Assembly: GCA_903869725.1 (NCBI GenBank)
Contig: CAIQAD010000046.1
Span: 1-53,278 of the forward strand
Direction: 5' to 3'
DNA: 53,278 nt
DNA from: an uncultured Alphaproteobacteria bacterium
GTDB taxonomy: Bacteria; Pseudomonadota; Alphaproteobacteria; Pelagibacterales; Pelagibacteraceae
The notes under the pieces were generated by a model. The model saw nothing but the letters and a program-made list of their open reading frames with translations. It did no database searches and was not told the origin of the DNA. Numbering within the stretch: position 1 is the stretch's first letter; every line of letters starts with the position of its first letter. Position numbers and translations under genes: made by a program. This document shows, one piece after another, positions 42,603-45,805 of the stretch.

Positions 42603-42746
42603 TTAAAAATTAAACCAATTATGTTTAAACACAAAGAAACTGTTGTTTCTATTTTTTCTCTGTTCTCTTTGTTTCATAAACTCTTCCTCATTGTTAAACC
42701 AAGGTTTACGTTTAACAATTTTTAATTTAGTAGTATTTTTTTTCAT
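42603..42746 (-). CDS. small basic hypothetical protein (47 aa)
   Basis: MKKNTTKLKIVKRKPWFNNEEEFMKQREQRKNRNNSFFVFKHNWFNF; preceded by AAGGAGG SD; overlaps 3' end of upstream ORF by 20 bp. Confidence 0.55.
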   Translation of the reverse strand: MKKNTTKLKIVKRKPWFNNEEEFMKQREQRKNRNNSFFVFKHNWFNF

Positions 42747-43230
42747 TCTTCTTATCCTCCTTCCAACCGTAAGCAGAGCCAAGTTTACCTTTATTGATCG
42801 GTTCATAAGCATTGACCCAACGTCCATACCTACTCCAATCAGTGCGCGGCTTATGTTCTACAAACGAACTTATGTTCTTTGCTGCAATTGCCTTTTCTAA
42901 CTCTAACTTACGTTCAGCTGCTTTAGTCGTTTGATAAACAGTAAGTTCATCCGCTGCACTAGTTGTTTGCTCTTCAACCTTTTCAGCTACAGGACAAGCA
43001 GTAGATGGTAGTTTAACTTTTTTGCCAGTCATTGCTTGATAGCGCATAGGATCATTGACCATCATGTAAGGTCCCCATGTTGCAACAAACTGATCACACA
43101 CATTTTTTATCTGCTGTTTAAAGTTTGGCTTTGTTTTGACACGGCTTAAACTTTGATAACGAGGATTATTTAATAAAACTCTTTTATTACGCCCGTAATA
43201 ACTGATTTTATAGTCTAGAATCTTACTCAT
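42727..43230 (-). CDS. hypothetical protein
   Basis: 167 aa intact ORF immediately downstream of 43230-43781. Confidence 0.7.
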   Translation of the reverse strand: MSKILDYKISYYGRNKRVLLNNPRYQSLSRVKTKPNFKQQIKNVCDQFVATWGPYMMVNDPMRYQAMTGKKVKLPSTACPVAEKVEEQTTSAADELTVYQTTKAAERKLELEKAIAAKNISSFVEHKPRTDWSRYGRWVNAYEPINKGKLGSAYGWKEDKKNEKKYY

Positions 43231-43781
43231 TATTTACCGCCTTTTCTTCTTTTATTTTGAGCTTTAAGAAGAAGATCTTCATACAACTGAACTCGACTTA
43301 TTAATCGGCCTTCAATTGTATTTAACTTTAGCAAAGAACTTCCAGCATTAGAGTCTCTAGTGAATGCAACCCCAATCAAAGACTGGTTCTTCAAAACTTT
43401 ATTTTGATCTCCTCTTTTAAAATCAGGATGAGAAATATTTGAAGACAATGTAGGTTTATATTTGTCTTTGTCATACTCAAGTATTTCATTGCCAAATATG
43501 CCAGTCTCAATTAACCCCACTCTTCTTAATCGCCATAAAAACTCAACCAGCTTTATAAAGATTTCTTCCTCGTACGCACCTCGAGGTCGATAGGTTTTAA
43601 ACATGCTGTCTTTTAAAGTATTAAACTCTTCAATACTTTCGCCAATGATCACATGCTTTTCTGCCGTTAATCCATGGCTTAAGGCATTGCCACTTACTAT
43701 TTGTTTTCCCGAAACTGATTTCGGGCCTGTTGATTTTAGAGCGTTTAATCTGTTTGCTCTAATTTTCTTTTTACTAGACAT
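43230..43781 (-). CDS. hypothetical protein of the 'STGPKTxxGK...NALxHGLTA' type
   Basis: RANRLNALKSTGPKSVSGKQIVSGNALSHGLTAEKHVI motif; SD AAGGAG before ATG. Confidence 0.75.
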   Translation of the reverse strand: MSSKKKIRANRLNALKSTGPKSVSGKQIVSGNALSHGLTAEKHVIIGESIEEFNTLKDSMFKTYRPRGAYEEEIFIKLVEFLWRLRRVGLIETGIFGNEILEYDKDKYKPTLSSNISHPDFKRGDQNKVLKNQSLIGVAFTRDSNAGSSLLKLNTIEGRLISRVQLYEDLLLKAQNKRRKGGK

Positions 43782-44038: not shown

Positions 44039-44356
44039 TTATGGGATATAATATATTTTTTCTCCTGATTTTAATGGGGTATTGCTGTCATCTTTTTTAA
44101 AAGCAGACTCATAACGTTCGCTGTTAATCCCAGCGGCATTATCTCTAATTTCAATCTCATTTCCTGATAAATTTATTTTAATTTTTAATTTATAATCAGG
44201 ATTAATTCTTTTAAGAATTTTTTTGTTAGTTAAATAGCTTTGAATTGAATTGTCTACAAATTCAGCAAGCGCGTACCACTCAGTGTATCTCATATTCTTT
44301 AGGAGTCCCAAAAGGCTTACTGTGGGTGCAATATTTAATTTTTGAATATCTTTCAT
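44039..44356 (-). pseudogene. 5' fragment of GHKL/HATPase_c_3 (MutL/MORC-like) ATPase
   Basis: ALAEFVDNSIQSY (N box) and IEIRDNAAGI (G1 box) present; G2 box and the rest missing; stops at 105 aa. Confidence 0.7.
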
Positions 44357-44394
44357 TTTAATTTTAAAATATTACTAATTTCAATATAAACAAT

Positions 44395-44748
44395 CTAATA
44401 ATCTATATAAATTTTATAATTCAATATCTTGCAAAAGTTATTAAGCAAAATTAATTGATTTATACTTCTTGGATAAACATCTAATAATTTAGGATTAAAA
44501 ATAATAATCGATATTAACTGTGATCTTGAGATAGAAACATTCAATCTATTTTTATCAAAAAGGAAGTCTAAATTTCTAGGCAAACATTCAGGATCTGAAC
44601 TTGTCATAGATACGATAGTAATTGATCCTTGTTGTCCTTGAAATTTATCGATCGTTCCCATTTTTGCTAATTTTTTAAATTTAGAAGTTAAGAAATTTGT
44701 TTGAATATTATAAGGACTAACAACAAGTATATCTTCTTTAGATATTAA
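44395..44748 (-). pseudogene. 3' fragment of UPF1/DNA2-like superfamily 1 helicase (AAA_12 domain)
   Basis: In-frame reading from 44748: ISKEDILVVSPYNIQTNFLTSKFKKLAKMGTIDKFQGQQGSITIVSMTSS...LFDKNRLNVSISRSQ; Walker A/B portion absent. Confidence 0.75.
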
Positions 44749-44750
44749 TT

Positions 44751-44822
44751 ATCTTTAAAAATTACTACTAAGCTAGGTAGAGGCTTATTTAAGCCCCTAC
44801 TCATCTAATAATTAATTTATTT
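44751..44822. repeat. 72-bp direct repeat, copy 1 (contains terminator-like hairpin GTAGAGGCTT/AAGCCCCTAC)
   Basis: atctttaaaaattactactaagctaggtagaggcttatttaagcccctacTcatctaataattaatttattt; differs from copy 2 at one base. Confidence 0.95.
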
Positions 44823-45614
44823 TAGTAATTCATTTAATGGTTCAGAAATAACTGAAACTGTATTCACTCCATTATGATCTAAACCAGCAAGAATTTTGTA
44901 TTGAGCATTAATATTAAGATCCGTTAATGATTTAATATAATCTAACGCAAGTACGTCAGCCGTATTGTTGTCATTGCTGCCTGTGATTGCAAATACTTTG
45001 GTTGTTTTTGGAATATTTTTAATAAAATCACTTGGTGACAACGAAAAATAACGAGACGACGCGCCCCTCATAAATCTCCAACTACTAATATTGCAAGGGC
45101 ATGCAAGTAATATTGCGCCTTCTGCAATGCCAGGAGTACGTCCAATCATTATACCGCTAGTCGCCGCTCCACCCGAATGTCCAATAAGAATAGTTTTAGT
45201 AGGTTTGTAATAATTTTTAAGAGATTGGACTGCAGCAGTCATCTCATCCAAATTTGTTGTTGTGTAACAATCACGTCTTCCACAATCACTTCCTGAAGAT
45301 TTATTATTTTGGTTATCAAAGTATCCAGGTCGCAAAATTGCAACTTTAACAGTTCCAGCGGGCACTTCTACTTTTTCAGCATTTCTAATCATGCCAACTA
45401 CAGGACCATTATCACTTTGATCGCCATGGATAAAAATTACTAAATTTTTTATTTTTGTTTCAGGATTTTTTTTAAAAGTATGAATAGCTAAACACTCATC
45501 TTTTCCAGTAACACGAGTTACTTTATCATTTAAACATTCAACTGATTGTGCCGAAGATATTAAAAATAGTTCTGAGCACAAAATAAAACTAAATAATATA
45601 AAAAGTTTTTTCAT
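44817..45614 (-). CDS. secreted alpha/beta hydrolase
   Basis: Signal peptide; VIFIHGDQSDNGP; nucleophile elbow GHSGGA; catalytic-like GLDHNGV. Confidence 0.82.
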   Translation of the reverse strand: MKKLFILFSFILCSELFLISSAQSVECLNDKVTRVTGKDECLAIHTFKKNPETKIKNLVIFIHGDQSDNGPVVGMIRNAEKVEVPAGTVKVAILRPGYFDNQNNKSSGSDCGRRDCYTTTNLDEMTAAVQSLKNYYKPTKTILIGHSGGAATSGIMIGRTPGIAEGAILLACPCNISSWRFMRGASSRYFSLSPSDFIKNIPKTTKVFAITGSNDNNTADVLALDYIKSLTDLNINAQYKILAGLDHNGVNTVSVISEPLNELLK

Positions 45615-45733: not shown

Positions 45734-45805
45734 ATCTTTAAAAATTACTACTAAGCTAGGTAGAGGCTTATTTAAGCCCCTACCCATCTAATAATTAATT
45801 TATTT
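45734..45805. repeat. 72-bp direct repeat, copy 2
   Basis: Same 72 nt as 44751-44822 with T->C at one position; same orientation. Confidence 0.95.

What the first reader, a model, noticed from the sequence alone, without database searches (positions are those of the whole stretch)
44039..44751. Fossil junction of a lost helicase-ATPase operon, cut exactly at a repeat
Two neighbouring minus-strand fragments are complementary truncations: the upstream one keeps only the C-terminal AAA_12 part of a UPF1/DNA2-like helicase (SPYNIQ...GTIDKFQGQQ...NRLNVSISRSQ), the downstream one only the N-box and G1-box of a GHKL (MutL/MORC-like) ATPase. They are 38 bp apart, so this ~710 bp appears to be the internal junction of an ancestral two-gene operon whose flanks were deleted. 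The helicase frame ends in a TAA (44749-44751) that coincides with the first base of the 72-bp repeat. Helicase and GHKL-ATPase genes are associated in the literature with restriction-modification-type defence operons (Iyer/Aravind work on MutL/MORC homologues), so a decayed defence island is a reasonable inference; the intact system may be poorly described.
Basis: partly seen in the sequence, partly recalled or inferred. Interest (0 to 1): 0.72.

Follow-up and report, generated by a model that had tools for sequence, protein, structure and literature searches.

The report
Debris of two marine defence genes
A short stretch in a SAR11-type marine bacterium holds the tail of a helicase gene and the head of an unrelated MORC-type ATPase gene, both broken; both are known families tied to phage defence or restriction-modification, and they are not neighbours in any other genome examined, so this is ordinary genomic debris rather than a trace of a new system.

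Summary
On the minus strand, 44395-44749 is the C-terminal ~115 codons of a UPF1-like (AAA_12) helicase. After 38 bp, 44093-44356 is the first ~87 codons of a GHKL ATPase. Both are truncated: relatives are ~1,120 and ~512 aa. The helicase homology stops within about 7 bp of a 72-bp repeat.

Relatives resolve both parts. The helicase is a RecB-like nuclease/RNase H/UPF1-helicase fusion (TIGR03491 N-terminus), with a second, contig-truncated copy elsewhere in this genome beside a Dcm methylase. The ATPase is a prokaryotic MORC of the published 'type 3' restriction-modification operon (MORC, Z1 helicase, nuclease, Dcm).

The two are not partners in any genome examined. None of 93 MORC loci contained a UPF1-helicase motif and none of the helicase loci contained a MORC motif. 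Apart from this genome only one sampled genome has both, on different contigs. The repeat is a duplicated hsp20 3' end and terminator.

Best reading: decayed island debris in a Pelagibacteraceae genome. The genes were probably once adjacent, but a conserved helicase-MORC operon is not supported.

The parts
44395..44749 (-). C-terminal ~115 codons of a UPF1-like (AAA_11/AAA_12) helicase of the RecB-like/RNase H/helicase fusion family; 5' ~90% of the gene missing, natural 3' end kept
   Evidence: AAA_12 E 2.8e-14; 71% aa to own contig C12 and matched in full-length 1120-1130 aa relatives; natural C-terminus aligned
44357..44394 (-). 38-bp spacer between helicase stop and GHKL start; gene end faces gene start
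   Evidence: direct reading
44093..44356 (-). N-terminal ~87 codons (N-box EFVDN, G1 DNAAGI) of a prokaryotic MORC-type GHKL ATPase; the remaining ~425 codons are missing from the assembly
   Evidence: HATPase_c_3 4e-6; 69% and 62% aa to full-length 512-aa MORCs; rest of the protein not found in the genome
44045..44103 (-). 59-bp piece of an unrelated small gene fused in frame after the GHKL fragment; it overlaps the GHKL homology by about 11 bp (microhomology at the junction)
   Evidence: 88% identity to G001:C22:113435-113493, alignments
44752..44822 (.). Repeat copy 1: duplicated hsp20 3' end and terminator, here downstream of the hydrolase gene and abutting the helicase fragment
   Evidence: terminator-like hairpin 44777-44800, z -2.7
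45735..45805 (.). Repeat copy 2: 3' end and terminator of hsp20, the ancestral position
   Evidence: single related copy at the hsp20 3' end in same-genus genome G003
44817..45614 (-). Alpha/beta hydrolase (Peptidase_S9-like) gene lying between the two repeat copies
   Evidence: Pfam PF00326 4.4e-6
43230..43781 (-). 183-aa 'RANRLNALKSTGPK' protein; with the 167-aa gene 42727-43230 it is a pair found at different chromosomal places in the genus, near a tyrosine recombinase in three of the four fetched relatives and beside a ~857-aa helicase-like ORF in one
   Evidence: no Pfam match

Best explanation
The segment is non-functional debris of a decayed defence or R-M island in a Pelagibacteraceae (SAR11-type) genome. 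Two genes of known families stood next to each other: a RecB-nuclease/RNase H/UPF1-helicase fusion and a prokaryotic MORC ATPase. Deletion or illegitimate recombination removed the 5' ~90% of the first, with the break at the duplicated terminator of the neighbouring hsp20/hydrolase genes. It also removed the 3' ~83% of the second, with the break at a ~10-bp microhomology to another island gene. Shown: the gene pieces, their relatives, the three junctions, and absence of the partners from this assembly. Inferred: original adjacency and the order of events. When intact, the MORC would be the ATPase of a restriction system (MORC, Z1 superfamily II helicase, RE-fold nuclease, Dcm methylase), expected to remodel DNA or complexes so that the nuclease acts on unmodified DNA (established family inference, PMC2292703). 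The helicase would be a nuclease-helicase that is R-M-linked in some genomes and stand-alone in others.
For: No truncated homologue exists elsewhere: the closest relatives have frames of 500+ aa and mostly ~1120 aa. Missing parts of the MORC and its Z1 partner are absent from the assembly and genus. Full-length MORCs lie in MORC-Z1-DUF4420/MTaX1-Dcm clusters, carry the S5 motif G-F-S-L-F-R-R-G-R-L-I and sit beside a Z1 protein with DTVYQRARFFG, the signatures given by Iyer et al.. A second helicase copy in this genome lies beside Dcm and a putative nuclease, and in G001 the helicase is followed by an N4/N6 methylase. The window helicase piece has 13 private amino-acid changes where three relatives agree, against 1 each for C12 and G001, consistent with relaxed constraint. 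The flanking gene pair is found at variable, recombinase-linked sites.
Against: Neither piece has internal stops or frameshifts, so decay must be recent if both are dead. Excess replacement on the helicase branch could also mean an older divergent paralogue. Read-level support for the junctions cannot be examined.
Confidence: 0.82

Rival explanations
1. One reading: the pair is the internal junction of an ancestral helicase-GHKL operon that was one functional defence system, now lost.
For: Same strand, 38-bp spacing, natural gene end facing natural gene start. MORC ATPases are usually linked to helicases in R-M operons (PMC2292703). One Pelagibacteraceae locus has a different superfamily I helicase (NERD-UvrD, 625 aa) directly upstream of MORC-Z1 on the same strand (L084).
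Against: 0 of 93 MORC loci (80 genome, 13 viral) hold the UPF1-type motif V pattern or the QGPPGxGK pattern, although these find the full-length helicase loci. None of the helicase loci holds EFVDN. Only one other sampled genome (G222) has both families, on different contigs. In 385 alphaproteobacteria only this genome has both. The partner seen next to full-length MORC in Pelagibacterales is Z1.
Confidence: 0.1
2. Assembly or amplification chimera: the junctions are artefacts of joining reads at the repeat or at microhomology.
For: One break coincides with a repeat edge and another with ~11 bp of shared sequence, as expected of chimeras.
Against: The helicase piece is only 71% aa to the genome's other copy, so it is not a misplaced copy of it. 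The two repeat copies differ from each other (92% over 87 bp) and the segment lies well inside a 53-kb contig. Relaxed substitution on the helicase branch fits a genuine old remnant.
Confidence: 0.07
3. The fragments are functional small proteins, for example a stand-alone GHKL N-domain acting as a dominant-negative or an anti-defence decoy.
For: Both frames are open, and the GHKL piece begins with a natural start codon.
Against: No short homologue in ~100-400 relatives. The ATP-binding G2 box is missing, the frame ends in unrelated sequence, and the helicase piece lacks a plausible start for its first ~27 residues.
Confidence: 0.02

Closest known systems
Prokaryotic MORC / type 3 MORC restriction-modification operon (Iyer, Abhiman, Aravind 2008, PMC2292703)
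   Same: The GHKL fragment is 62-69% identical to full-length Pelagibacteraceae MORCs that carry the MORC S5 motif and lie beside a Z1 superfamily II helicase with the DThhQXuRhFG motif, a nuclease gene and Dcm.
   Different: Here only the first ~87 residues survive; S5 domain, Z1, nuclease and a linked Dcm are all absent.
MZA anti-phage system (MzaB ATPase, MzaC Z1; NCBIfam NF041932, NF041933, PADLOC)
   Same: Relative G067 scores MzaB 7e-7 and MzaC 9e-36: same GHKL-Z1 pairing.
   Different: All scores are far below the equivalog cut-offs (28 vs 850 bits, 123 vs 1500), so these relatives are MZA-like, not MZA; the window fragment itself scores only E 0.1.
TIGR03491 (TM0106 family RecB-like putative nuclease) + RNase_H_2 + AAA_11/AAA_12 helicase fusion
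   Same: The helicase fragment is the C-terminus of this architecture; the G001 relative scores TIGR03491 6e-66, RNase_H_2 1e-23, AAA_12 1e-27.
   Different: Window copy lacks nuclease, RNase H and Walker A parts.
Mokosh MkoA (PADLOC)
   Same: Best PADLOC match of the helicase domain (2e-15 fragment, 1e-38 full length).
   Different: Match covers only the helicase core; relatives have TIGR03491 and RNase H parts instead, and no Mokosh partner gene was identified.

Membership tests
Prokaryotic MORC ATPase (type 3 R-M operon) | GHKL N-box and G1 box at the N-terminus | tested here: met
   EFVDN and DNAAGI present; HATPase_c_3 4e-6; 69% aa to L084 MORC
Prokaryotic MORC ATPase (type 3 R-M operon) | G2 box and S5 domain with GhXhhpXXRhl motif | tested here: not met
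   Absent from the fragment and from the whole assembly; present in all six full-length relatives
Prokaryotic MORC ATPase (type 3 R-M operon) | Neighbouring Z1-type superfamily II helicase with DThhQXuRhFG | tested here: not met
   No Z1 (PF10593) in this genome or the 12 same-genus genomes; control genome rings
Prokaryotic MORC ATPase (type 3 R-M operon) | RE-fold nuclease (DUF4420 or equivalent) and Dcm alongside | tested here: not met
   None between 41 and 46 kb of the window; present in relatives
RecB-like/RNase H/UPF1 helicase (TIGR03491 fusion) | AAA_12 C-terminal helicase half with motifs V and VI | tested here: met
   GTIDKFQGQQ and RLNVSISRSQ; AAA_12 2.8e-14; 71% aa to C12 copy
RecB-like/RNase H/UPF1 helicase (TIGR03491 fusion) | N-terminal RecB-like nuclease, RNase_H_2 and Walker A | tested here: not met
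   Sequence upstream of 44749 is repeat and hydrolase gene
   0 of 93 MORC loci and none of the helicase loci
MZA anti-phage system | MzaB/MzaC above equivalog cut-offs | tested here: not met
   28 vs 850 bits and 123 vs 1500 bits in the G067 relative

The most novel reading that the evidence does not exclude
A rare Pelagibacteraceae restriction-type system in which a RecB-nuclease/RNase H/UPF1-like superfamily I helicase, rather than the Z1 superfamily II helicase, worked with a MORC ATPase; this segment would be its only known trace.
Probability: 0.06. Interest if true: 0.5.

Novelty: new member of a known kind. Interest (0 to 1): 0.15.

Why it matters
It shows at base-pair scale how defence genes are broken up in streamlined SAR11-type genomes: gene ends stitched together at microhomology and at a duplicated terminator. 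It also adds a MORC remnant to a genus in which no Z1 partner was found. It does not by itself point to a new system. The side finding, a nuclease-helicase that is R-M-linked in some Pelagibacterales and stand-alone in others, is modestly useful to defence-island annotation.

Tried and rejected
Rejected: an intact helicase-MORC pair elsewhere. Searched ~100 relatives, 297 and 397 genomes of the order, 385 of the class for both families, 80 genome loci and 13 viral loci of the MORC, 5 viral helicase loci, and 14 MORC-bearing genomes for the helicase, which had no positive control in the same search. Rejected: repeat as a mobile-element boundary. It is an hsp20 3' end and terminator; no tRNA lies nearby. 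Rejected: the C12 nuclease being the MORC-locus nuclease; no similarity. First viral scan with a single MORC sequence found nothing. Paper searches for MZA by name found nothing useful, and one for the TM0106 family returned only unrelated RNase H2 papers.

Full report
SETTING. The window is a whole 53,278-bp contig (C46) of a 1.08-Mb, 97%-complete genome. Its relatives with names are Pelagibacteraceae, so this is a SAR11-type alphaproteobacterium.

WHAT IS THERE. On the minus strand, 44395-44749 reads ...DILVVSPYNIQTNF...GTIDKFQGQQ...NRLNVSISRSQ...NNFCKILNYKIYIDY*, and 44039-44356 reads MKDIQKLNIAPTV...EFVDNSIQSY...IRDNAAGINSERYESAFKKDDSNTPLKSGEKIYYIP*. Pfam: AAA_12 E 2.8e-14, end of the profile only; HATPase_c_3 E 4e-6, start of the profile only. 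The spacer is 38 bp.

HELICASE PIECE. The same genome has a second, contig-truncated copy (C12, 267 aa, 71% aa identity) convergent with a Dcm methylase and a 362-aa protein, possibly its nuclease. A same-genus genome (G001) has the full 1,125-aa gene, followed by a DUF4365-like protein and an N4/N6 methylase. The full protein is TIGR03491 RecB-like nuclease + RNase_H_2 + AAA_11/AAA_12. Seventeen of 397 genomes of the order match, fifteen of them convincingly besides this one. In those inspected it lies either beside R-M genes (G051, G062) or alone near folC/trp genes. The window piece keeps the natural C-terminus but shows 13 private replacements at sites where three relatives agree, versus 1 each for C12 and G001.

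GHKL PIECE. The closest full-length relatives are 512-aa proteins of Pelagibacteraceae single cells (L084, 69%; L085, 62%). They carry the MORC S5 motif (GFSLFRRGRLI against GhXhhpXXRhl) and are followed by a Z1 helicase with DTVYQRARFFG (against DThhQXuRhFG). Dcm and either DUF4420 or MTaX1 nuclease-like genes are nearby. This is the type 3 MORC operon of Iyer et al. 2008, whose figure legend lists Candidatus Pelagibacter among its species (PMC2292703). In the window, homology stops at residue ~87, before the G2 box. The remaining ~19 codons are a 59-bp piece, 88% identical to the 5' part of a small unrelated gene of G001. The two homologies overlap by about 11 bp, so the junction lies in microhomology. 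Neither the rest of the MORC nor a Z1 gene is present in this assembly.

REPEAT. The 72-bp repeat comprises the last codons of hsp20 plus a terminator-like hairpin. Same-genus G003 has a single related copy, at the hsp20 3' end. In the window a second copy ends the hydrolase gene and abuts the helicase piece. The helicase homology ends within 44746-44752, so 'cut at the repeat' is right to within ~7 bp. The repeat marks a duplication of a gene end, not an element boundary.

WERE THEY AN OPERON? Anatomy says the intact genes were probably adjacent: 3' end to 5' start, same strand, 38 bp. Comparative evidence says this was not a conserved pair. A motif V pattern and a QGPPGxGK pattern found the full-length helicase loci but none of 93 MORC loci with up to 10-kb flanks. 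EFVDN was in none of the helicase loci; that pattern misses some MORC loci, so it is the weaker test. G222 has both families, on different contigs. In 385 class-wide genomes only this one has both. One MORC locus (L084) has a different superfamily I helicase, NERD-UvrD, directly upstream, so helicase genes can sit there without being the UPF1 type.

FLANK. The 183/167-aa gene pair to the left occurs elsewhere in the genus at different places, three of them beside a tyrosine recombinase, in keeping with a plastic site.

VERDICT. Real, recent debris of two known defence-associated families, stitched into a variable site. The defence-island inference stands; the operon inference does not gain support. 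The main uncertainty is whether all junctions are genuine, which needs reads or a second strain.

Noticed in passing
L005 (own genome contig C12) 478-2608: Overlapping Dcm-type methylase (351 aa) and a 362-aa protein without Pfam match, convergent by 4 bp with a helicase gene cut by the contig end: a likely type II R-M pair with a novel nuclease.
   Followed up: partly
L084 9171-11048, 7559-9097, 5001-7586: NERD-UvrD helicase, MORC and Z1 consecutive on one strand, with two convergent Dcm genes flanking an MTaX1-domain protein: an elaborate MORC R-M cluster.
   Followed up: partly
L082 5529-8111 and L083 4597-7197: 860-aa proteins (L082 copy scanned) with two RNA polymerase alpha-CTD-like domains and a sigma-70 region 4 immediately upstream of MORC-Z1-DUF4420; an unusual partner, perhaps a regulator.
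   Followed up: no
window 44817-45614 between repeats 44752-44822 and 45735-45805: Hydrolase gene inserted with duplication of the hsp20 3' end and terminator; looks like gene gain by recombination at a terminator.
   Followed up: partly
L033 3018-3296, 13339-13719, 15863-16201: Family of small, apparently paralogous proteins scattered in the G001 island (by eye, not aligned); a relative of one supplied the 59-bp piece in the window.
   Followed up: no
window 42727-43781; L224, L225, L226, L227: Gene pair (KSTGP-type protein plus 167-aa protein) occurring at different sites in the genus, three of the four fetched sites beside a tyrosine recombinase.
   Followed up: partly
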